Shown here one piece after another: positions 9,668 to 25,807 of a stretch of 64,000 bases of DNA (its first letter is position 1; the number at the start of each line of letters is the position of its first letter). The position numbers and the translations under genes were made by a program. The DNA comes from Nitrosospira sp. Nsp2 (GTDB lineage Bacteria > Pseudomonadota > Gammaproteobacteria > Burkholderiales > Nitrosomonadaceae), in assembly GCF_003050965.1 (NCBI RefSeq), contig NZ_QAOU01000002.1:496001-560000 (forward strand). The letters run 5' to 3'. Below the pieces are notes generated by a model. That model had not been told where the DNA came from and ran no database searches. It saw nothing but the letters and a program-made list of their open reading frames with translations.

Positions 9668-10336
9668 TCAGTGGTTTGGTAATTTGTATTTACCATTCTG
9701 AGCTGAGTCCAATAATTGCTCTTTTATTTTATCCATCAGTTCAATAATGTTATCGAACAACTCTTCAACATCATCTGACTTTACGTCGATAAATCGCCCA
9801 TGCGCTATTGCGTTCCGCTTGCTTACAAGCTTCGTATCGATGAGCATCCGTTTCAGCTCATAGCCTTGCCATGACAACCCCAGGGACTCATAAATATCGC
9901 GAAAAACATCGAACCACAAATTGCTCTTGGTATCCACGCCGTTTTTATATGGTATGTAACCACGACGGTCTCCGTGCTCTCGATAAAAGGAAGCCATGAG
10001 CCGATCGGCCTCAGCTCCAGTAACGTCACTTTGAGAAACATGCCGACGTGCAGCCAACGCCAAAAACGGGGATAACATTTCTTTGTTGGCAAGCCGCTGC
10101 AAGGCAACAAATTCCAAATAGGCCCCACATGCTGCCTTCACGAACCCTTCCCAATGCGCATATAGCATCGTGATGCAAGGTCTTAAGAGAGAAAGATCGT
10201 CCTCCCTAGCCACCCCAATTTTCCCGATACCCGATAAGAGTTTTTTACGTAATATACTTAACTCTTTTAATCGCCACACTCTCTCAGCATCCAGCGCATC
10301 TTGAAGCTGTGACAACGTTCGAAGAGTCTTGCTCAT
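9668..10336 (-). CDS. MAE_28990/MAE_18760-like HEPN nuclease
   Basis: This 222-residue helical protein carries KRNAIAHG near residue 175, an R-x4-H motif that is the RNase active site of HEPN domains. The region ITMLYAHWEGFVKAACGAYL is typical of the MAE_28990 group. Such HEPN proteins are found in toxin-antitoxin and phage-defence loci, commonly right after DUF262 proteins. Its ATG overlaps the stop of the upstream DUF262 gene by 4 bp (ATGA), so translation is coupled. It is expected to cut RNA when activated. The catalytic motif is intact although its partner is frameshifted. Confidence 0.8.
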   Translation of the reverse strand: MSKTLRTLSQLQDALDAERVWRLKELSILRKKLLSGIGKIGVAREDDLSLLRPCITMLYAHWEGFVKAACGAYLEFVALQRLANKEMLSPFLALAARRHVSQSDVTGAEADRLMASFYREHGDRRGYIPYKNGVDTKSNLWFDVFRDIYESLGLSWQGYELKRMLIDTKLVSKRNAIAHGRFIDVKSDDVEELFDNIIELMDKIKEQLLDSAQNGKYKLPNH

Positions 10337-11429
10337 TTTTTGAAATGCTTTCGTCCGAGCTCAACTAAACGAGGAATGCGTATTTTTGCGTTTGATCCGG
10401 AACCAACGTTAGCCAATAACAGCGGCATAGACCACATCTCTTTGATTTTCTGCCTAACAAGCGCAATGTCATTTTCGTCGTTCTCATCGTAGCTATCCAG
10501 GTTAAAACCTAGACCAACCGCAATGGGCTCAAACGCAGAATCGAGAAAGCGACCTTGGAATCTCTGGCCATTATATTTACGGAATGTGGATTCTCCAGTT
10601 GCGTTAAATAACAGGGTAAAAAGCTTTTCAAAACGTATTTTTTCATCGCTTGTCGCAATGTTCTGCTCGACGAAAAGTTTTTCAATGCTATCCGTCAAGT
10701 AGTCAGAAACATCCCTGCCGCCTAACTCGCTCCGGGACAAAGCAAAGTACTTTAAGGCCAGTTCCACATCGTAGCGCTCATCAAGAGCCCGGTCGGTTAG
10801 TGAAAGACATTCTTCAAATTTATCGAAGTGGCTAACCGCTTCCAACCATTCAAATGCCGCTAAATTCAACATCACCAGCAGGCAGTTTCTTACCTCTTGC
10901 TCTGACAAAAATGTTCCACCCGTATTCAACCGCTGAAACACCTCAAATTTAGCGTTCGCATCTGACTCCTTCTGGATAATTTCAACCTTGATTTCGAACG
11001 CTTGAAATCGAGCTGAAGCGATTTTGGAAGCGGTTTTGTGTTTTGGCTTGATTCCTCCCAAGCGATACCGTCGAGGCTGGGAAGTAGTTTTGTTCCAATC
11101 AATTTGAGCGGTGGCAATACCGCCCCTTGAGTGCCTTTTAGCTTTCCAACAAATTCAAGAATGGTTGATATTCTTTGTAAGCCATCAACCAACTCCCAAA
11201 CACCGTCGCTCCTCTGATAGACGAAAATTGCAGGTGTGGGAATGCCCAACAGAAACGATTCCACCAAACGCGACTTTTGCCCCTGAGTCCATCGGAAAAA
11301 TCTTTGGAAGTTTGGGTTAATGACCATTTCGTCGTTCTCGTAGAGATTTACGATCTCCCCGATGGACATTGGATACCCATCGGTTCTGAATTCTTTAACT
11401 CGAGCTTTTAGTTCTTCTAGAAGATCCAT
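10333..11429 (-). pseudogene. DUF262 (GmrS/ParB-like nuclease) gene with a frameshift
   Basis: Two overlapping frames give one DUF262 protein of about 365 aa. The first (start 11429) holds the core: NPNFQRFFRWTQGQKSRLVE and the ELVDGLQRISTI motif equivalent to DGQQR, up to LPKSLQLDFKR. The second continues from FEIKVEIIQKESDANAKF through EVFQRLNTGGTFLSEQE to the stop at 10333. The switch falls near 10995-11005, with no long homopolymer there. DUF262 proteins resemble ParB/GmrS, a DGQQR NTPase/nuclease used in defence against modified DNA. Together with the overlapping HEPN gene it forms a known two-gene defence pairing. The frameshift may be real inactivation or a sequencing error. Confidence 0.8.
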
Positions 11430-11662: not shown

Positions 11663-13225
11663 TCATGGTTTCGTGGCGATCTCGTTAAATCCAAGCAGTC
11701 CAGAAGGACCAAAGGATGTGCCCTCCCATCTAGGGATGCGTTGACGCTCTGTACGGAATCCTTCCAGAAGCGGCAAAAGAGCATCCTTGGACTCCACTCC
11801 TAGGAGAATCTTTACTTTTTCGAAATAAATTGCTGACCTGGAGCGTGCGAATACTTCAAAAGATCCGGGATGCTGACTGGCTACATACAAGAGAGTTTCT
11901 GGCCACCAATGCCACTGATCATTTGGCCTGTCAAGGTTGCCACGCATGAAGAGAATAAAGTCCGCCTGCATTAGATACCGGAACTCGACTCCCGATCCTT
12001 TCGAGCGTTGTTCGAGTAGGTCGGCTCGAAGAGATAGTCGACGTAGACCGAGTCTTTTGTTTCTATACTCGAGCGACTTCACGTGTTGGCCGAAGACCTC
12101 AAACGGAACCATCGGCTCCTTGCTGTACTTTGAGTAGCCGGATACGTAGTATCCGTTTGCCATGAGAAAGTTTGCAGATTCGAATCTTTCAGCGCGAATT
12201 AATGTTGCTAAGGCGTAGAGGAATAGTTCGTGAACGATAAATTTGAAATTATCAACATCCCATTCTCTATAGCTGCCAGCGTTCTGCTGCTGCTCGAGGT
12301 AGGGAATGAGGCGTTCAAAGAAGCGGTGAATCGCTGTATGAGTTTCGTACGAATCTCGGTATAGAGCAATATTCACGAATAACTCAATAGCTTCGTTTCT
12401 ATAAGGTAAGAATGTCTCAATGTTTTGAATTACCTCGTCGTCAAACGGATCAATTGATGCGTCGATTCGGAATTTCTCTAACTCGTTCGCAAGCGTTGTC
12501 AGATACTCGATCGTTACGGCGTCGGAGTTGCCACGCCCGTTCTTTATTGCGTCAAGTGCACGCTTCTGACGCGACGAAGTACCTAATGAAACCTGTCGCT
12601 GTTCCTCCGAGAGAAAACCTGGTTTTTGACCGAGACCAGGCTTTCTGTAAAGTGGTTGCTCATACACCCAGCGAATCAGCTTCTCAAAGTTTTCGCCCGC
12701 GGTACCAGCATCACTGAAGTCGATGTAAATGCGAGAATGGTAATAGGCTGGGAGATATGCCTTTCCTTCGTCATCTCGCTCCTTGACGACTGCGACAAAT
12801 TTATCTTGCGCTTGGCTAGTATAGATTTCCGGTGAGATGATCTGAGTTTCGGTTCCAACTCCACCGCTTCTGCCGTCGGCCTTCTGAACATAAACCTTGT
12901 CGCAGATGAGCGCCACCTTTTTTATTTCTGGGTCGGAAACCATACGTTCCATGAAGACATGGGCGTCGTGGCCTTCTTTGAGATCCCACTTGTCGAGGAT
13001 CACATCGATACCAGACTCTCGCAAATCAGTAGCAAGCTGAACGACCCAAGCTTCATGATCTTGGCTCGTCCAACTATAGGAAATGAAGAGCTTCGGATTG
13101 CACACCTTAACATCCTCTTTGTCGTTTTTTACAAGGCGACTGTTTTTCGCCCCAACCACAACTCGGCCTCTGGACTTCGCTTCCATCTCTATGGGGTAAG
13201 CGATCAACAAACTCAGATTTTCCAT
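11663..13225 (-). CDS. SEFIR (TIR-like) domain protein, probable defence effector
   Basis: In this 520-residue protein residues about 44-200 form a SEFIR domain, a relative of TIR: KLFISYSWTSQDHEAWVVQL, ESGIDVILDKWDLKEGHDAH, KKVALICDKVYVQKADG and GVGTETQIISPEIY. The remaining 320 residues are helical, with no known enzyme or repeat domain that I recognise. Bacterial SEFIR/TIR proteins are often found in antiphage islands, where the TIR fold cleaves NAD+ or signals. There is no membrane segment. It lies upstream of, and on the same strand as, the DUF262-HEPN pair, in the tRNA-Leu island. The start is uncertain: ATG 13225 is weakly served, and a nine-codon frame with a perfect ribosome binding site overlaps it; ATG 13186 is an alternative. 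Confidence 0.75.
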   Translation of the reverse strand: MENLSLLIAYPIEMEAKSRGRVVVGAKNSRLVKNDKEDVKVCNPKLFISYSWTSQDHEAWVVQLATDLRESGIDVILDKWDLKEGHDAHVFMERMVSDPEIKKVALICDKVYVQKADGRSGGVGTETQIISPEIYTSQAQDKFVAVVKERDDEGKAYLPAYYHSRIYIDFSDAGTAGENFEKLIRWVYEQPLYRKPGLGQKPGFLSEEQRQVSLGTSSRQKRALDAIKNGRGNSDAVTIEYLTTLANELEKFRIDASIDPFDDEVIQNIETFLPYRNEAIELFVNIALYRDSYETHTAIHRFFERLIPYLEQQQNAGSYREWDVDNFKFIVHELFLYALATLIRAERFESANFLMANGYYVSGYSKYSKEPMVPFEVFGQHVKSLEYRNKRLGLRRLSLRADLLEQRSKGSGVEFRYLMQADFILFMRGNLDRPNDQWHWWPETLLYVASQHPGSFEVFARSRSAIYFEKVKILLGVESKDALLPLLEGFRTERQRIPRWEGTSFGPSGLLGFNEIATKP

Positions 13226-14604: not shown

Positions 14605-15030
14605 ATGAAAACAAATTTGGCGAATCTTATGGCAGCGTTATCAATGGCGGGCCTGCTCGCTTCGCTGAGTCCTGTTGTGATGGCATCCGAGCCTGTTGAG
14701 GCTGCCGTGATCCGTGTGGCAGCCGAGGGTGCGACTACGCAAGACGATCATGACGCCTTGGCAAAGCTATATGAAGACGCCGCAACAGAATTGCAGGCAA
14801 AGGTAGCGGAAACAAAGGAGCTGCTCGAACACTATGAGGATAAAAGCTATCTTTATGGCAGGCGGGCTCAGGATCTGCAATCGCATACCCATGCATTAAT
14901 CCGCAACTACGAGAAGTCTGTCAGGAAAAATCTGCAAGCCGCCGCGATGCACCGACAGATCGCTGGAAGGCTCAAAGAAAACCATGCCTCCGCAGAAGCC
15001 AGCATGCCTGAGGCGCTGAGTGGACTATAA
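14605..15030 (+). CDS. Small periplasmic coiled-coil protein, paralogue B
   Basis: The 141-residue protein has a signal peptide (LANLMAALSMAGLLASLSPV, cleavage near VMASEP) and an Ala/Glu/Lys-rich helical body (AKVAETKELLEHYEDKSYLY, GRRAQDLQSHTHALIRNYEK). It is the paralogue of the gene at 8638-9060; about half of the residues agree, with the KSYLYGRxAQDLQSHT block best kept. I recognise no named family. It probably acts in the periplasm, where helices of this kind bind the envelope or other proteins. Expression may be controlled through the conserved block at 14526-14552. Function unknown. Confidence 0.8.
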   Translation: MKTNLANLMAALSMAGLLASLSPVVMASEPVEAAVIRVAAEGATTQDDHDALAKLYEDAATELQAKVAETKELLEHYEDKSYLYGRRAQDLQSHTHALIRNYEKSVRKNLQAAAMHRQIAGRLKENHASAEASMPEALSGL

Positions 15031-15108: not shown

Positions 15109-15150
15109 ATGAACGTAGACGACATTTCTAAAAGTGCGAAGACTGGCTAA
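15109..15150 (+). other. Thirteen-codon frame, possibly a truncated gene start
   Basis: AGAGGAAACC precedes ATG 15109, which encodes MNVDDISKSAKTG and stops at 15150, inside the stop region of the convergent dioxygenase gene. It may be the stub of a second gene of the coiled-coil operon cut when the phenol operon arrived. Confidence 0.3.
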
Positions 15151-15824
15151 CCTCGGAATACGATATCGAATTCCGCGACCATGAAGTCGGGCTCCTCCCG
15201 GGACGGGCTGAGCTTTACAATCAGTGCTTCCGGATCAAGGACGCTCTGCAGAAATCGGTCCTTTGAGATATACGGATCTCCCTCGAAATACAGCTGTGAA
15301 ATCAACTCGTCGCGTTTGCCTCTCACATCGAAGTGAATATGAGCTGGCCGAATCATGCCTGGTGCAGCGGGGTAATGAAGCGGCTTTATAGTTTTGAACT
15401 GATAGCGGCCATCGGCGCCGGTAGTGACTGCCCCGAAACCCTCAAAGTTGGGATCGAGCGGCGCTGGGTTCGTGTCATCAGGATGAGCGTAGCGTCCTGC
15501 GGAATTGGCTTGCCAGATTTCGACATCGGCTCCCGCAACCGGTCTCCCGTGGGGGTCGATCACGCGGCCCCTGACAATGAGAAGCTCTCCCTTGGCGCGT
15601 TCCGAGCCTCCCGGGACCCGGGTTAGGTCCCCGCTGCGATTGGGCTTGCTCATGATAGGATAAAATGGACCCAGGATCTGGTCTTGTGTCCGCCTTAGCG
15701 TCATCTGGGCAAGAACAGAACTTATGGGGGCGAGCATACCGGCAGCGAGTAGAGCTGCTGAGGCTTTCAGAACGGTGCGCCGACCAGGTGTTGTCCGCCT
15801 TGGCGTTGGCCTGTCAAACTTCAT
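15147..15824 (-). CDS. Tat-exported intradiol ring-cleavage dioxygenase-like protein
   Basis: The 225-residue protein opens with a twin-arginine signal (GRRTVLKASAALLAAGMLAP). The rest is an intradiol dioxygenase fold: QILGPFYPIM, GRVIDPHGRPVAGADVEIWQ, then the iron-ligand positions in AGRYAHPDD (Tyr) and PLHYPAAPGMIRPAHIHFDV (Tyr, His, His). The family opens catechol or protocatechuate rings with Fe3+. A periplasmic form is unusual; Tat export fits a folded metalloprotein. Start chosen at 15824 (AGGAATATT before ATG) because the signal begins there. It is the last gene of a five-gene operon, 62 bp after the alcohol dehydrogenase. The exact substrate cannot be told from sequence. Confidence 0.85.
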   Translation of the reverse strand: MKFDRPTPRRTTPGRRTVLKASAALLAAGMLAPISSVLAQMTLRRTQDQILGPFYPIMSKPNRSGDLTRVPGGSERAKGELLIVRGRVIDPHGRPVAGADVEIWQANSAGRYAHPDDTNPAPLDPNFEGFGAVTTGADGRYQFKTIKPLHYPAAPGMIRPAHIHFDVRGKRDELISQLYFEGDPYISKDRFLQSVLDPEALIVKLSPSREEPDFMVAEFDIVFRG

Positions 15825-15886
15825 AATATTCCTCAAGGATATCTGATTAAATTGGCATACTCCTGATGGGATGCCCGCATGCTGAA

Positions 15887-17005
15887 TCATCCCTCACTGG
15901 CGGCCAGACGGATGACAGGCTTGATAGTGACGCCCTTCTCGCTGTCTTCTGCTGCCTGGTTGATCTGGTCGAGCGTATAGAATTTCACCAGCTTGTCGAA
16001 AGGAAACCTTCCCTGCATATAAAGCTCGACCAACGCCGGAATGAAAAGATCCGGCTTGCTTTCACCTTCTATAATGCCAATGATGCGCTTGCCAGCCGTC
16101 ATCACATCATTGACGTCGAAACTCGCCTCGGTGCCCAGGGCGGGCGCGCCAACTATGCCGCAGGTCCCGCCGATCGATAGCGCATCAATCGCCTGGCGAA
16201 GAACTGCGGGCCGGCCGCTTGACTCGAGCGTGAAATCGGCACCTCCCCCGGTAATTTCACCCACCGCTGTTATCGGGTCAGTTTCGCGGCTGTTCACGGT
16301 ATGAGTGGCGCCGAGTTCCTTCGCAAGCTCCAGGCGGGAAGGAACTACGTCGGAGACAATAATTGTCGTTGCACCCGCCACACGTGCCGCCATGACTGCG
16401 CTCAATCCAACCGCCCCACCGCCAAAGGTTGCGAAACTGCTGCCGGGCGTGACTTTAAGCGCATTGATGACCGCTCCGGCCCCGGTCTGGATGCCGCAGC
16501 CCAGCGGACCCAGTAACTCGAGGGGCGCATCGCGCGGCACCCTGATGACGTTACGCTCGTGCACCAGCGCCAAGGTCCCGAAAGACGATTGCCCGAAGAA
16601 ATGGTCGTGAATTGGCCTTCCCCCAGCTTCGCAAGTGGCTGTGCTCCCGTCCTCCCGCGCGCCGCCAAAATTGAGCGGGTAAAAATTCTCACAATAGGTT
16701 AGGTCTCCCCGCAGGCAGGGTTTGCAGTGCCCGCACCACATATAGGTCAGCACCACGTGGTCTCCTGCCTTGACCTTTTTCACACTGCCGCCCACCTCTT
16801 CAACCACGCCCGCGCCTTCATGCCCGAGCACGATCGGTAGCGGCACATCGTAGAGCTGGTCGCGCGCAACCATATCGGTATGGCACATGCCGGTCGCCAC
16901 TACCCGCACCAGCACCTCGTCCGGCCTCGGCTCATCCAGGAACAGTTTCTCGACCTGGAAAGGGCCGCCCTTCTGGCGTATTGTTGCCCCCGTGATCTCT
17001 CTCAT
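15887..17005 (-). CDS. Zinc-dependent (aryl-)alcohol dehydrogenase
   Basis: The 372-residue protein is a class III-like medium-chain dehydrogenase. It has catalytic zinc ligands in GMCHTDMV, GHEGAGVV and LGCGIQTGAG, four cysteines for the structural zinc (CGHCKPCLRGDLTYC), and a nucleotide-binding segment (ATFGGGAVGLSAVMAARVAG). Such enzymes oxidise aromatic alcohols, e.g. benzyl, vanillyl or 4-hydroxybenzyl alcohol, to aldehydes with NAD+. In this operon it would act on the alcohol made by the upstream flavocytochrome. It has no export signal, so it works in the cytoplasm, while cytochrome and dioxygenase are exported. Gap to the flavoprotein gene: 79 bp. Confidence 0.9.
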   Translation of the reverse strand: MREITGATIRQKGGPFQVEKLFLDEPRPDEVLVRVVATGMCHTDMVARDQLYDVPLPIVLGHEGAGVVEEVGGSVKKVKAGDHVVLTYMWCGHCKPCLRGDLTYCENFYPLNFGGAREDGSTATCEAGGRPIHDHFFGQSSFGTLALVHERNVIRVPRDAPLELLGPLGCGIQTGAGAVINALKVTPGSSFATFGGGAVGLSAVMAARVAGATTIIVSDVVPSRLELAKELGATHTVNSRETDPITAVGEITGGGADFTLESSGRPAVLRQAIDALSIGGTCGIVGAPALGTEASFDVNDVMTAGKRIIGIIEGESKPDLFIPALVELYMQGRFPFDKLVKFYTLDQINQAAEDSEKGVTIKPVIRLAASEG

Positions 17006-17084
17006 CCCTGGTCTCCGATATGCCTCATTCGGTTAACTTCGAAAAAGATTTTAGGCAGCATGGGACAATCCGCATGCGGCTCGG

Positions 17085-18632
17085 CTAAAGCCGGATGCCC
17101 GATTTGCCCGGCGCAAGAATCCCGTTTGGATCAAGCGCTTTCTTTAGAATTTTGTTGACGTTGCGCTGCACCGGGCCGTATGTATCGGCCACCTTATCCA
17201 TGAATGCCGTGTTGACGCGGTAGATTCCATATCCCTGTGCCGAAAACGTCGTCAGCAGCTCATCGAAGCACTCGTGCGCTGCCTTCACCTGCTCCGGGTT
17301 TGCCTTGTCGTACAAGACATCGACGACATGATGCATGTCGCGCATGCCGACAATGAATTCCCCGGAATAATCCAGCCCATGCTTGGCAAGAATTTGTTTG
17401 GTCAGGGTCATCTGTTTGAGCGTCTCGCTCCCGCGAGCCTGCGATACGGGCGCGAACCACATTGAGCCGCCGCCGCCGCGCCAGTTGTAGAGGGAAAATT
17501 CCTTGAGCGTCATTTCTCCGCTCATGAGCTTGGCCCGGTATTCAAACGCGGCGTCGCCTGCCGCTTCCTTCTCAGTCAATATCTTCGCCTTGCCGGATTT
17601 GCCAAACGCCTGTGTTACGATCTTCCAGTTCACGTCAATCTGTTCCTGTGTCCCATAGAGGGCCGCATACACGTTCCAGATTCCAAGATTGTGATCTTTC
17701 GTAATTTTACGAACAGCTTCATCCGGGATCGATCCAGGTCCGGTTACATAGTCGCCACGCCGCGCTTTGGTCGGGGCTTCGTACAATGCATGGGCTATGA
17801 CCACAGCATTGGGAATAACACTATTGATACGCAGCGGACGGATTGTTTCCACAATCTCCACGATATCCTGCTCATCCTGGTACTGAACGACGAACGGCTT
17901 GAAAACCGGTGGCGCAGGCATGAGCCAGAAACCGAATTTGGTGACGATTCCATAGTTGGACTGGGTAAAAATTCCATCAAGATAGGGACCGTATCCCCAT
18001 TTAAAAACCTGCCAGGTATTTGAGTTTGGCAGCGAGCCCATCCCGGTACGCAACACTTCGCCATTCGCCAGCACTACCTCCATTCCGCAGGCAAACATGA
18101 AATGCTCTCCATAGGGGGTATATCCGACTCCCCGGTCCAGCGTATTGCCTACCGGACCGGCAATGGCCGAGGGCGCTGGCATGGAAAGCCATAAGCCCAG
18201 CTTGTGCTCGGCGATATAGTCGTAGAGCTGTTTATAAGTGACGCCCGGTTCAACCAGGGCATAGGCCAGGTCCTTGTCGACTTCAAGAATACGATTCATG
18301 CGCTTGAGATCAAGCACCACCTGTCCGCGTTCGGCCGGTGCCGCTGAACCGTAACCCAAGTTCTTGCCGGTTGAGATGGGCCAGACAGGTACTTGGTACT
18401 TGTTGCAAATGCCCACGATCTTCTGGATCTGCTCCACCTTTGTGGCCATTATTGCCGCAGAAGGAGTGTGCCGCGAGTCCGGGACCGGCATCATGGTTTT
18501 GATGTAGGGGGCGAGTTGCTCAGCGGATACGAGCACAGCAGAATCTCCCAGTACGGCGCGAAAGGCGCTGATGGCGGCATCGAAAGTCTGTTCGGACACG
18601 CCGTGGGGCAACGCAATATATTTACTGGCCAT
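17085..18632 (-). CDS. 4-cresol dehydrogenase/eugenol hydroxylase-like flavoprotein subunit
   Basis: The 515-residue product belongs to the vanillyl-alcohol oxidase family. The FAD-binding half has VPVWPISTGKNLGYGSAAP and PAPSAIAGPVGNTLDRGVGY; the substrate half has YNWRGGGGSMWFAPVSQARG and the terminal LDPNGILAPGKSGI. Length matches PchF (about 521 aa) and EhyB. These enzymes take electrons from 4-alkylphenols, add water at the benzylic carbon, and pass electrons to a small cytochrome c, which is encoded 1 kb upstream in the same operon. Whether p-cresol, eugenol or a vanillyl alcohol is the substrate cannot be told. It has no signal peptide of its own; export might occur with a partner. The following gene starts 79 bp on. 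Confidence 0.88.
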   Translation of the reverse strand: MASKYIALPHGVSEQTFDAAISAFRAVLGDSAVLVSAEQLAPYIKTMMPVPDSRHTPSAAIMATKVEQIQKIVGICNKYQVPVWPISTGKNLGYGSAAPAERGQVVLDLKRMNRILEVDKDLAYALVEPGVTYKQLYDYIAEHKLGLWLSMPAPSAIAGPVGNTLDRGVGYTPYGEHFMFACGMEVVLANGEVLRTGMGSLPNSNTWQVFKWGYGPYLDGIFTQSNYGIVTKFGFWLMPAPPVFKPFVVQYQDEQDIVEIVETIRPLRINSVIPNAVVIAHALYEAPTKARRGDYVTGPGSIPDEAVRKITKDHNLGIWNVYAALYGTQEQIDVNWKIVTQAFGKSGKAKILTEKEAAGDAAFEYRAKLMSGEMTLKEFSLYNWRGGGGSMWFAPVSQARGSETLKQMTLTKQILAKHGLDYSGEFIVGMRDMHHVVDVLYDKANPEQVKAAHECFDELLTTFSAQGYGIYRVNTAFMDKVADTYGPVQRNVNKILKKALDPNGILAPGKSGIRL

Positions 18633-18647
18633 TATTTGGTCCCCTGG

Positions 18648-19658
18648 CTAAATGTCTATTACGAATGAGGTGAACCGGCCTGCCTTGTCGGGCCTGCCAC
18701 GCTTGACTCCGCCTGATTGGTATACATGGGCGCGCGCGGAGCAGGATTCATGACCCGCTTCGGCGCCTAGCGCGGCAGCCACTACTGCATACCCTACCGC
18801 TTCCACCCACCCGCTGGCATGCGGCTCATCGTTCTCGAAGGCGCTCCTTCGCTTTCCGGAGGCTGCTGTTTCGAGCCCTGGTTCCTGATTAACCGGAATC
18901 CATGCAGGGGTCGTGTCCCAGCCCAGCAATTGGCAGCCATCCGTTGGCGACACGCCAGCGCAATAAAGATAGGCCGGGTCGTGTCCGGATCCGGCGCCCT
19001 CGAGTCGCCAGGCTAGAAACCCGGGAGGAAATTTATTGGCCGTGCCCCGCTCTTCCGCCCCCTGAGTGGAAAAGAAATTCTCCACGATGGAAAAGCTGCG
19101 CTGGCTTTGGACGAGCCGCGCGGCGAGGATGCCGCCTGCGGCATGCGAAGGGGATGCGGCGGCCCAAACGTGCCTGAGTCCGGAAACGCGCGCGGCGCTC
19201 CCACGTACCAAAGCCTCGCCCGAAGAAGCATGAGAACCCAACGAAACCAAACCGCCGCCCGCGTTGCGCACCAGTTCGGTGAAGACCGCGGCGCTGCCAT
19301 CATCCATGACTGCGATCCATCGGGTATCGCGGAACGTCTCAAGCAAGTAGGCAACTTTCTCGTATTCGTTCAGCAATCCGTCTTTAAGCTTCATCACCTC
19401 CAGCCCACTTTGTGCGCCTCTTGCATCGGTTGCGGAAGTGGCATCGTGCCCTGTAGCGGCTCGGCGGGCGTTCGCGGCAAAGGCGGTGCGAGCTCCAGCT
19501 GCGAATTCGGCGTCAGCCGCCCCGCTCCCAAGCAACAGTCGCAGTCTTCCCGGCTTGCCCGCGGAAGCGGCCGCCGTTGTTATCGGCGAGATGCCCAGCG
19601 TCAGCAGCGTGCTTCCCATCAATGCGCCTTTCATGAGATTACGTCGATACACATCCAT
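18648..19658 (-). CDS. Tat-exported protein of unknown function in the phenol operon
   Basis: This 336-residue protein starts with a twin-arginine signal (YRRNLMKGALMGSTLLTLG) and is then Ala/Gly-rich. I do not recognise the family; no cofactor motif is obvious. Segments such as ARVSGLRHVWAAASPSHAAG and RTANKF-like stretches give no function. It sits between the cytochrome subunit (39 bp upstream) and the flavoprotein (15 bp downstream), so it is surely co-transcribed with both. It might help assemble or export the flavocytochrome, or bind the substrate in the periplasm; both are inferences from position. Confidence 0.75.
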   Translation of the reverse strand: MDVYRRNLMKGALMGSTLLTLGISPITTAAASAGKPGRLRLLLGSGAADAEFAAGARTAFAANARRAATGHDATSATDARGAQSGLEVMKLKDGLLNEYEKVAYLLETFRDTRWIAVMDDGSAAVFTELVRNAGGGLVSLGSHASSGEALVRGSAARVSGLRHVWAAASPSHAAGGILAARLVQSQRSFSIVENFFSTQGAEERGTANKFPPGFLAWRLEGAGSGHDPAYLYCAGVSPTDGCQLLGWDTTPAWIPVNQEPGLETAASGKRRSAFENDEPHASGWVEAVGYAVVAAALGAEAGHESCSARAHVYQSGGVKRGRPDKAGRFTSFVIDI

Positions 19659-19697
19659 GAGCTACTCTCCCCCGTTTGACTTCCCTTGGCAGCCTTT

Positions 19698-20024
19698 TCA
19701 GTTCGCCGAGATGTATTCGGCCAATTTTGTCAGAGACTCGTCGTCAATTTCTGCCGCGCGAAAAGATGGCATTGCCCGGTTTCCATTTCGTACAATAGTG
19801 CGGATATAAATGGGGGGAAGCGCACGGCCGCGAATGGCTGGCCCAACGCCCTGCTCGTGGCAATATGCACAGACCTTGGCATAGACCTCGGGCCCGTCTT
19901 TCCATACGAAGGCTCCACTGGGAGCAGGAGGAGCTGCAAATGAGGTTTTTGTCACGATTGCTGCAGCAATCGCTATCGCCATCATAAAACCACTCGCCAC
20001 GGCTGCGATCGCAATTTTCCTCAT
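19698..20024 (-). CDS. Small class I cytochrome c (flavocytochrome electron acceptor subunit)
   Basis: The 108-residue protein has a signal peptide (RKIAIAAVASGFMMAIAIAA) and a single haem site CAYCH (near residue 52), followed by GVGPAIRGRALPP and a Met ligand in NRAMPSFRAAEID. Size and order fit PchC or EhyA, the cytochrome subunit that accepts electrons from the flavoprotein at 17085-18632. It acts in the periplasm. It is the first gene of the operon, so the promoter should lie in 20025-20110. In an ammonia oxidiser the electrons could enter the existing cytochrome c pool; this is an inference. Confidence 0.88.
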   Translation of the reverse strand: MRKIAIAAVASGFMMAIAIAAAIVTKTSFAAPPAPSGAFVWKDGPEVYAKVCAYCHEQGVGPAIRGRALPPIYIRTIVRNGNRAMPSFRAAEIDDESLTKLAEYISAN

Positions 20025-24625: not shown

Positions 24626-25807
24626 ATGAACCTGTCTGAATACATCCACGCTACCAGCCGCCCCTACAGCTCTCTTTTGAAAGAACTTACCATCTGGGGA
24701 AAGCTTTTCTCGTCAAAACAGCTCGCGTTCAACATGCAGACGCAGACTGCGTCTAACTGGTGTTGGGCTGCAGCGTCAGCAAGCGTATCTCATTTCTATT
24801 GGTGGTGGAGCACGTGGACTCAATGCCGAGTGGCGAACGGAGAGCTTGGTCATAGCGATTGCTGCAATAGCCCTGTCCCAGCCCCATGTAATGTCCCTTG
24901 GTATCTCGACAGGGCCCTCACGCGTACCAATAACTTCGTAAGCACGCTGGGGCAAGGAAGCTTTCAGCAGGTAAAAGCGGAAATCGATGCATGCAGGCCC
25001 GTAGGCGCGAGAATTGGCTGGAACGGCGGCGGAGGCCATTTCATTGTGATTCACGGTTACAGCCGCATTCTCGATCTGGAATACTTCGATATCGACGACC
25101 CGATATATGGCAAGAGTCATATGACAGTATCGGATTTTGCCAGCAACTACCAGGGAAGCGGAACCTGGACGCATACCTATTTCACCAAGAGCTATTTTAA
25201 AATGCCAATAAAATATCTGATCCCGGTAGAGCCAATTCTTCGCCGTATCTGGGAAGCCCGTCCACTATTGCAGCTGAAACAGGGAAAAATTTCGGCTTCG
25301 GAGTCGGCAGAAGCGCGGGCAAGTCGAGACGCGGCCGATGAAGAACGCGCGGCATTGGGTATGGCTCATCGCGTGTATTCGCTAGGGCTGGACTCACTAC
25401 TAGGACAACGGGAGGCTGCCCCGGATCCTGTGGCGCTACGGGTTTTTGAAACTGTGGAAGGCACGCCCCAGGCCTTTTATGATGTCACTGAAGAAGCAGA
25501 ACCTCGCGTTCTGCAAATGTCGGCAGCAAAGCGGCGGCTGGATTTGTTTTCCCGAGGGCTATCCGAAGTTCTTGCCACAATCGGCAAAGGGGATCAGGAA
25601 GCTGAGCTACGGGTATTTCAGGTGCCGGGACTTAATTTCGAGGCGTTATGGATTAGTTATGAAGGCGAAGGACAGGATGTGCTCATTCCATTGCATACAG
25701 TAGGCCGGTTGGCTCAATACAAGCCGGTGTTCTGGAACGAAGCCTTGGACGCGTTACGGGAAGCCGCCCGGCCGTTAGCCGATATGGATGATACGATGGG
25801 AGCTTGA
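24626..25807 (+). CDS. AvrRpt2-like papain-fold cysteine protease
   Basis: The first 200 residues of this 393-residue protein match the C70/AvrRpt2 and C39-like papain fold: MQTQTASNWCWAAASASVSH with catalytic Cys46, GARIGWNGGGGHFIVIHGYS with His138, and FDIDDPIYG with the Asp (about 155-158). A DCC cysteine pair precedes NVPWYLDRAL. The remaining 190 residues are helical and mixed, without a known domain. There is no signal peptide or glycine-type leader. AvrRpt2 is a plant-pathogen effector, but relatives are widespread in soil and gliding bacteria, with unknown targets. The gene is single and ends at a hairpin (25853-25882). Start ATG 24626 follows GAAGGGAAAG. Confidence 0.75.
   Translation: MNLSEYIHATSRPYSSLLKELTIWGKLFSSKQLAFNMQTQTASNWCWAAASASVSHFYWWWSTWTQCRVANGELGHSDCCNSPVPAPCNVPWYLDRALTRTNNFVSTLGQGSFQQVKAEIDACRPVGARIGWNGGGGHFIVIHGYSRILDLEYFDIDDPIYGKSHMTVSDFASNYQGSGTWTHTYFTKSYFKMPIKYLIPVEPILRRIWEARPLLQLKQGKISASESAEARASRDAADEERAALGMAHRVYSLGLDSLLGQREAAPDPVALRVFETVEGTPQAFYDVTEEAEPRVLQMSAAKRRLDLFSRGLSEVLATIGKGDQEAELRVFQVPGLNFEALWISYEGEGQDVLIPLHTVGRLAQYKPVFWNEALDALREAARPLADMDDTMGA

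What the first reader, a model, noticed from the sequence alone, without database searches (positions are those of the whole stretch)
15147..20024. Five-gene operon for phenolic compound oxidation with two Tat-exported proteins
A cytochrome c (CAYCH), a Tat protein of unknown function, a 4-cresol/eugenol-type flavoprotein, an aryl-alcohol dehydrogenase and a Tat-exported intradiol dioxygenase are encoded in one run with gaps of 15-79 bp. This would turn a 4-alkylphenol into an alcohol and aldehyde, and cut an aromatic ring outside the cytoplasm. In a presumed ammonia oxidiser, seen as a strict chemolithotroph, such a set is unexpected. The unknown Tat protein between cytochrome and flavoprotein may be a new subunit or chaperone.
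Basis: partly seen in the sequence, partly recalled or inferred. Interest (0 to 1): 0.75.

Follow-up and report, generated by a model that had tools for sequence, protein, structure and literature searches.

The report
Nitrifiers' shared p-cresol-oxidising operon
An ammonia-oxidising bacterium carries genes for oxidising p-cresol-like phenols outside its cytoplasm; the same gene block is found in many other nitrifiers, including nitrite oxidisers of another phylum, and its puzzling middle gene looks like a carrier that takes the signal-less flavoenzyme across the membrane.

Summary
The five genes are real. They form a p-cresol methylhydroxylase (pch) operon: cytochrome PchC, a Tat protein, flavoprotein PchF (321 of 508 residues identical to P. 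putida PchF, FAD-linking Tyr kept), a benzyl-alcohol-type dehydrogenase and a Tat-signal intradiol dioxygenase.

(1) The set is not peculiar to this genome: 49 close flavoprotein rows form one clade of ammonia oxidisers, Nitrotoga and Nitrospira, with the same gene block. The dioxygenase is accessory (3 loci). (2) The 'unknown' Tat protein is homologous to the gene at the same place in other pch loci (recalled name: PchX). A small Tat-signal ORF accompanies signal-less PchF at 49 of 49 nitrifier and 45 of 54 other loci, against 7 of 246 and 8 of 106 control positions. Three flavoproteins with their own Tat signal lack it. I propose that PchX is a Tat 'hitchhiker' that carries folded PchF out; a 2025 paper notes that PchF lacks a signal although PchCF is periplasmic.

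Ring cleavage as a next step is not supported: no pobA over cut-off in 21 genomes. The natural substrate is unknown.

The parts
19698..20024 (-). pchC-type cytochrome c (108 aa), N-terminal hydrophobic signal
   Evidence: PF13442 4.2e-20; only PDB match at E <= 1e-4 is the PCMH cytochrome subunit 1dii_C, 1e-21
19857..19871 (-). haem c motif CAYCH (residues 52-56)
18648..19658 (-). pchX-type Tat protein (336 aa): proposed Tat carrier of PchF
   Evidence: no Pfam or NCBIfam match; 36-row alignment A1; mature part matches the pchX-position proteins of intermediate loci, prob 98.6, E 1.1e-15
19572..19658 (-). Tat signal MDVYRRNLMKGALMGSTLLTLGISPITTA
   Evidence: R5, R6, K10, G11 invariant in 36 rows; residues 1-24 mean pairwise identity 0.69 against 0.45 for the mature part
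19221..19400 (-). conserved PchX core (residues 87-146, ..RWIAVMDDGSAAVFTELVRNAGG..LGSH..)
17085..18632 (-). pchF-type flavoprotein (515 aa), no signal peptide of its own
   Evidence: 321 of 508 aligned residues identical to P. putida PchF 1dii_A, 776 bits
17487..17489 (-). codon of Tyr382, equivalent of the FAD-linking Tyr384 of PchF
15887..17005 (-). Zn-dependent aryl/benzyl-alcohol dehydrogenase (372 aa)
   Evidence: ADH_N and ADH_zinc_N; benzyl alcohol dehydrogenase 1f8f 487 bits; beside pchF in 47 of 50 nitrifier loci incl. the window
15147..15824 (-). intradiol dioxygenase of PcaH type with Tat signal (start at 15824, or 15890)
   Evidence: Dioxygenase_C 1.4e-37; PcaH alignment keeps the two Tyr, two His and Arg recalled as iron ligands and active-site Arg; adjoins the block in 3 loci only
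15705..15824 (-). Tat signal of the dioxygenase (..GRRTVLKASAALLAAGMLA..)

Best explanation
The operon makes a periplasmic p-cresol methylhydroxylase-type flavocytochrome. PchF folds and takes up FAD in the cytoplasm but has no export signal; the middle protein (PchX) binds it, lends its Tat signal and takes it through the Tat pore as a hitchhiker; outside, PchF meets the Sec-exported, haem-loaded cytochrome PchC. The enzyme hydroxylates the para-alkyl carbon of a 4-alkylphenol with water and passes electrons to cytochrome c, hence to the terminal oxidase; the 4-hydroxybenzyl alcohol or aldehyde formed is oxidised further by the NAD-type dehydrogenase and, in about 20 relatives, by an adjacent aldehyde dehydrogenase. 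In nitrifiers this most likely removes inhibitory phenols, with a few electrons gained, rather than feeding growth. Shown by sequence: enzyme identity, gene block, its spread in nitrifiers, the PchX-PchF pairing. Inferred: the carrier role, the substrate, the benefit.
For: PchF identity and residues; PchC. Middle protein is homologous to the pchX-position protein of other pch loci: full length to L084 (prob 99.7, E 4.9e-26), mature part only to a set of eight intermediates (98.6, 1.1e-15; best of 25 column shuffles scores 19 against 107). Pairing: small Tat-signal ORF at 49 of 49 nitrifier and 45 of 54 other loci; control positions 7 of 246 and 8 of 106. Of the nine misses one (L107) has such a gene by eye, three (L095, L103, L113) carry a Tat signal on the flavoprotein itself and show no other Tat-type small ORF on their strand, five (L098, L100, L101, L112, L119) show neither a cytochrome nor a signal. 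The own-signal clade sits inside the PchX-bearing set. The PCMH crystal entries in the PDB search show only flavoprotein and cytochrome, as expected if PchX is not a lasting subunit. The nitrifier signal is more conserved than the mature protein (0.69 against 0.45). Precedent: the Tat hitchhiker subunit of FAD glucose dehydrogenase (PMC6719666, passages). Detoxification: neighbours include WrbA-type quinone reductase (12 of 50 loci), FMN reductase (16), LigB-type extradiol dioxygenase (20), aldehyde dehydrogenase (20); no pobA over cut-off in 21 genomes.
Against: No experiment and no structure or complex model (structure prediction busy, switched off). The own-signal switch is one clade, so one evolutionary event. 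Sequence similarity to the short alphaproteobacterial and the distant small Tat proteins is weak (nitrifier set against distant set scores below its best shuffle), so family-wide homology is not proved. The automatic hit at L071 is not a PchX (it is a spurious ORF or the cytochrome). Published authors suppose that the cytochrome's signal guides the flavoprotein (PMC12724174, discussion read). Against a role on the root inhibitor MHPP: N. europaea and N. multiformis cells did not degrade 200 uM MHPP over the assay (PMC13056722, passages). 81 of 125 family genomes lack a >=84% copy, so the operon is dispensable.
Confidence: 0.66

Rival explanations
1. PchF is exported through the cytochrome's Sec signal and PchX does something else. 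This is the supposition in print for BpfAB and PchCF.
For: PMC12724174 (discussion read) says signal peptides are predicted for the cytochrome but not the flavoprotein and supposes guidance by the cytochrome.
Against: From established knowledge, Sec threads unfolded chains and haem c is attached outside, so a folded FAD protein cannot ride on the pre-cytochrome. It does not explain why a Tat gene accompanies signal-less PchF or why three flavoproteins with their own Tat signal, beside a cytochrome, lack it.
Confidence: 0.08
2. PchX is a lasting periplasmic subunit, or an assembly factor for flavinylation or haem binding, and not mainly an export carrier.
For: A folded mature domain of up to about 300 residues with a conserved core and a conserved C-terminus; the C-terminal part is larger than a mere signal carrier needs.
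Against: It does not explain how PchF leaves the cytoplasm. PDB entries of PCMH show two chain types only. The relatives of Paracoccus type are only about 110-120 residues including the signal.
Confidence: 0.2
3. The operon is for mixotrophic growth on alkylphenols.
For: Dioxygenase beside the block in three loci; aldehyde dehydrogenase and LigB-type extradiol dioxygenase near it in 20 of 50 loci each.
Against: No pobA over cut-off in 21 genomes; PF00775 is missing in 9 of 21; the dioxygenase is not part of the conserved block. Nothing in the operon makes a catechol. Other routes were not searched.
Confidence: 0.12
4. The enzyme serves an internal need: clearing p-cresol made by thiamine synthesis (ThiH), or supplying 4-hydroxybenzoate for ubiquinone.
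For: Would explain presence in autotrophs without an outside phenol.
Against: ThiH over cut-off in 0 of 24 genomes or records; UbiC is present in 16 of 21 incl. this genome; the Nitrospira members lack UbiC but their quinone was not tested.
Confidence: 0.03

Closest known systems
P. putida p-cresol methylhydroxylase PchCF (pchC-pchX-pchF order recalled, not fetched)
   Same: 63% identical flavoprotein, FAD-linking Tyr and active-site residues kept, matching cytochrome; small Tat gene between the two in its nearest relative fetched (L053, Thiobacillus).
   Different: Middle protein is 336 aa against 223 in L053; dehydrogenase in place of the recalled pchA; own clade; no pobA.
BpfAB of Sphingobium yanoikuyae (bisphenol F)
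   Same: Signal-less flavoprotein with cytochrome; in strain SJTF8 (whose flavoprotein the paper% identical) a Tat-type small gene lies next door (L114:4976-5545).
   Different: 46% identical over the match; no covalent FAD by the paper; the paper passages seen do not mention that gene.
Tat hitchhiker gamma subunit of Burkholderia FAD glucose dehydrogenase
   Same: Proposed logic: small Tat-signal protein carries a signal-less FAD subunit that pairs with a cytochrome (PMC6719666, passages).
   Different: Different enzyme fold; no match of the PchX profiles to that chain at E <= 1; gamma stays in the complex.
Novosphingobium sp. ES2-1 type flavoprotein (PDB 9ffk/9fge kin)
   Same: 52% identical, cytochrome next door.
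   Different: Own Tat signal, no small Tat gene.

Membership tests
p-cresol methylhydroxylase (PchCF) | full-length VAO/PCMH flavoprotein close to PchF | tested here: met
   321 of 508 identical, 776 bits
p-cresol methylhydroxylase (PchCF) | FAD-linking Tyr384 and active-site residues (list recalled) | tested here: met
   Y95, E380, Y384, W394, E427, H436, V438, D440, Y473, R474 kept; R512 is Lys
p-cresol methylhydroxylase (PchCF) | dedicated c-type cytochrome encoded beside it | tested here: met
   1dii_C 1e-21
p-cresol methylhydroxylase (PchCF) | oxidises p-cresol with cytochrome as acceptor | not testable with these tools
   needs the enzyme
PchX family | pchX position next to pchC/pchF | tested here: met
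PchX family | homology of the mature part to PchX proteins of other pch loci | tested here: met
   intermediates 98.6, 1.1e-15; A2 set mature part 88.7, 2.6e-6, best of 40 shuffles 16.3 against 44.5; weak to short and distant sets. P. putida PchX itself was not available
Tat hitchhiker carriers | Tat signal on the carrier, none on the cargo | tested here: met
   (motif and hydrophobicity rules of my own, no SignalP)
Tat hitchhiker carriers | carrier binds cargo and is needed for its export | not testable with these tools
   structure tool switched off; needs bench work
Protocatechuate 3,4-dioxygenase (PcaGH) | alpha and beta chains together | tested here: not met
   single PcaH-like gene; 164.7 bits against a cut-off of 296.4 for TIGR02422; no second PF00775 gene in the block
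Aryl/benzyl alcohol dehydrogenase | Zn medium-chain fold close to benzyl alcohol dehydrogenase | tested here: met
   1f8f 487 bits over nearly full length

The most novel reading that the evidence does not exclude
Cytochrome-linked VAO/PCMH-type dehydrogenases as a group are exported by a so far unrecognised kind of Tat carrier (PchX), lost when the flavoprotein gains its own Tat signal; and a nitrifier-adapted version of this operon has spread across phyla (Nitrosomonadaceae, Nitrotoga, Nitrospira) as a shared defence against phenols that inhibit nitrification.
Probability: 0.38. Interest if true: 0.82.

Novelty: new variant of a known kind. Interest (0 to 1): 0.7.

Why it matters
How the signal-less flavoprotein of p-cresol methylhydroxylase reaches the periplasm is open in print (PMC12724174 supposes the cytochrome's signal). 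A Tat carrier gene lying beside it, with natural counter-examples that carry their own signal, makes the question directly testable and would help heterologous production of this enzyme class. Separately, a phenol-oxidising operon shared by ammonia and nitrite oxidisers of two phyla suggests a common chemical pressure on nitrifiers; if the phenols are plant or sludge inhibitors of nitrification, it bears on how durable such inhibitors are. In the papers library I found no paper linking this enzyme to nitrifiers (searches: 0 papers each) and none relevant for pchX (listing only); the library lacks most subscription journals.

Tried and rejected
Rejected on evidence: p-cresol from thiamine synthesis (ThiH over cut-off in 0 of 24); 4-hydroxybenzoate supply for ubiquinone (UbiC in 16 of 21); growth via pobA (0 of 21); the middle gene as nitrifier-only (L084, a genome without an AMO match, carries a full-length relative). 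The direct tblastn of the middle protein against plasmids found nothing; its kin appear only through neighbourhoods and profiles. PDB searches with the PchX profiles gave no credible relative (chance or Tat-signal matches). Promoter and terminator scans were uninformative (7 promoter-like sites against 3.5 expected, 5 terminator-like against 6.1). Paper searches gave context only.

Limits: the genome-contig scan uses exact 8-residue patterns of the window protein and so favours close relatives; 'nitrifiers only' holds for the 49-row clade among the loci found there and for samples of 399 order and 398 phylum genomes, not for all bacteria. AMO absence in some assemblies, e.g. N. europaea (G136), shows that AMO can be missed. 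Tat calls rest on my own motif and hydrophobicity rule; the automatic nearest-hit list has false picks, adjudicated by eye. Rows dropped before the 49 of 49 and 45 of 54 count: the window itself, L031 (masked), L048 and L061 (N-terminus off contig), L102 (flavoprotein cut by an IS).
Full report
What is there. Five minus-strand genes at 15147-20024 encode, in order of transcription, a small cytochrome c, a 336-residue Tat-signal protein without Pfam or NCBIfam match, a 515-residue FAD protein, a Zn alcohol dehydrogenase and a Tat-signal intradiol dioxygenase. Upstream 659 bases separate the cytochrome from an ADP-ribosylglycohydrolase gene; downstream the next ORF is convergent, so the five can form one unit. 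The genome (3.46 Mb, 21 contigs) has an AMO gene.

The enzyme. The FAD protein aligns end to end with P. putida p-cresol methylhydroxylase PchF: 321 of 508 positions identical, and the residues that I recall as FAD link and active site are kept except Arg512, which is Lys. The cytochrome's only PDB match at E <= 1e-4 is the PCMH cytochrome. The dehydrogenase is closest to 5tnx and to benzyl alcohol dehydrogenase. The dioxygenase resembles PcaH and keeps the two Tyr, two His and Arg recalled as ligands and active-site Arg, but scores far below the PcaH cut-off (164.7 against 296.4 bits).

Spread. A scan of one genome per species with the flavoprotein gave 70 loci. With the window, 49 rows form one clade (SH-aLRT 100; quick tree without bootstraps): Nitrosospira, Nitrosovibrio, Nitrosomonas, Ca. 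Nitrotoga nested in Nitrosomonas (98), and Nitrospira. A few rows carry vague names (Proteobacteria, Gallionellaceae, Burkholderiales, Nitrospirae bacterium) but lie among the named nitrifiers. Identity to the window is 78-92%. Cytochrome, Tat protein, flavoprotein and dehydrogenase stand in the same order in nearly all of them; the Tat protein gives a tblastn match in 0 of the 25 other loci of that set that were compared. In the window's family a relative of at least 84% is in 44 of 125 genomes, a 65-67% one in 4 more; in its genus 17 of 23. In the family of N. defluvii 12 of 175 genomes have a full-length relative of 78-84% and 4 more have broken or partial ones. One of seven further Nitrospira genomes tested has AMO, so is likely comammox; the rest of the seven, and the four, have no AMO match. 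In an even sample of 399 genomes of the order, 5 have at least 86% and 5 have 64-74%; the 74% one (L084) has no AMO match and is sister to the nitrifier rows. Cross-phylum transfer is the plain reading; its direction is not settled.

Neighbours. Among 50 nitrifier loci incl. the window, many of them truncated, clusters near the block are an aldehyde dehydrogenase (20 loci), a LigB-type extradiol dioxygenase (20), an FMN reductase (16) and a WrbA-type quinone reductase (12). The intradiol dioxygenase adjoins in three (window, L010, L018); PF00775 occurs in 12 of 21 genomes tested. pobA is over cut-off in none of 21. This looks like oxidation of a phenol to a benzoate plus care of quinones, not a complete catabolic route; other routes were not searched.

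The middle gene. Gene order in P. putida (pchC-pchX-pchF) is recalled. In loci of other bacteria fetched here a small protein with a Tat motif lies between cytochrome and flavoprotein, or just outside them. The nitrifier protein is homologous to these: full length to L084 (prob 99.7), mature part to eight intermediates incl. Thiobacillus L053, whose flavoprotein groups with P. putida PchF (98.6, E 1.1e-15), and, mature part, to a mixed set A2 (88.7, E 2.6e-6, score 44.5 against 16.3 for the best of 40 column shuffles). To the short alphaproteobacterial and the distant proteins alone the link is weak: nitrifier against alpha 2.7% (20.5, best of 25 shuffles 15.2), nitrifier against distant 0.6% (17.4, below its best shuffle 18.9), intermediates against distant 57% (34.5 against 19.3), intermediates against alpha 20% (26.3 against 15.7). 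So membership of the nitrifier protein is firm; one family for all is likely but unproved.

Carrier hypothesis. No nitrifier flavoprotein shows a signal by my rule, while a Tat-type small ORF is found at 49 of 49 nitrifier loci and 45 of 54 others; positions shifted by 3-6 kb on the same strand give 7 of 246 and 8 of 106. The L071 hit is spurious. By hand: 39 other loci have cytochrome and Tat gene, 6 the Tat gene without a cytochrome seen in the held stretch, 3 have a flavoprotein with its own Tat signal and no Tat gene (L095, L103, L113; cytochrome beside each), 5 have none of these, and 2 (L071 on a 3.3-kb contig, L102 cut by an IS) have a cytochrome and no Tat gene. The three own-signal rows are one clade nested in PchX-bearing rows, hence one event. 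Three of the five that have nothing are actinobacterial, two (L112, L119) are not; flanks of L112 are 1.5 kb only. In nitrifiers the signal (residues 1-24) is more conserved, 0.69, than the mature part, 0.45. Precedent for the logic is the hitchhiker subunit of FAD glucose dehydrogenase (PMC6719666, passages).

What is known. PMC12724174 (discussion read) states that the flavoproteins BpfA, PchF and PcmI lack a signal peptide, that PchCF is periplasmic, and supposes guidance by the cytochrome's signal. In S. yanoikuyae SJTF8, whose flavoprotein that paper% identical to BpfA, a Tat-type small gene follows the cytochrome (L114). Searches for pchX (13), PCMH with twin-arginine (49: two papers; passages of one seen) and PCMH with signal peptide (101: eight listed; passages of two seen) gave me no proposal of a PchX carrier.

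Function in nitrifiers. Detoxification is my best guess. Against one attractive substrate: N. europaea and N. multiformis did not degrade MHPP over the assay (PMC13056722, passages), though cells were not said to be induced. PMC12642758 (abstract and outline) shows that heterotrophs degrade such inhibitors.

Noticed in passing
window 11663-13225 (-): SEFIR-domain gene, PADLOC bSEFIR 3.5e-118, Pfam SEFIR 8.6e-19: candidate anti-phage gene.
   Followed up: partly
window 10333-11429 (-): Two overlapping ORFs in different frames match successive parts of one GmrSD_N/NsnA-type protein: looks like a frame-broken restriction-type gene next to the SEFIR gene.
   Followed up: partly
window 24626-25807 (+): Papain-like cysteine protease of Pfam Peptidase_C70, 1.2e-8, in an ammonia oxidiser.
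   Followed up: no
L002 (G000:C3:196015-197496, outside the window): A second VAO/PCMH-type protein in the genome, 27-31% identical to the flavoprotein; best PDB matches 9fge/9ffk.
   Followed up: no
L088-L091 (four Nitrosomonas-genus genomes G049, G017, G015, G018): A different pch type (65-67% identical) that groups with Thiobacillus and other betaproteobacteria, so a separate acquisition.
   Followed up: partly
L018/L027 (Nitrosomonas sp. JL21), L016/L074 (N. multiformis Nl18): Two copies of the operon in one genome.
   Followed up: no
G181:C29:1655-3100: Nitrospira-family flavoprotein gene read with two stops inside: decayed or misassembled copy.
   Followed up: no
window 14605-15030 (+): Convergent small ORF with signal-like N-terminus and no Pfam match; a relative lies near L022's pch block.
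   Followed up: no
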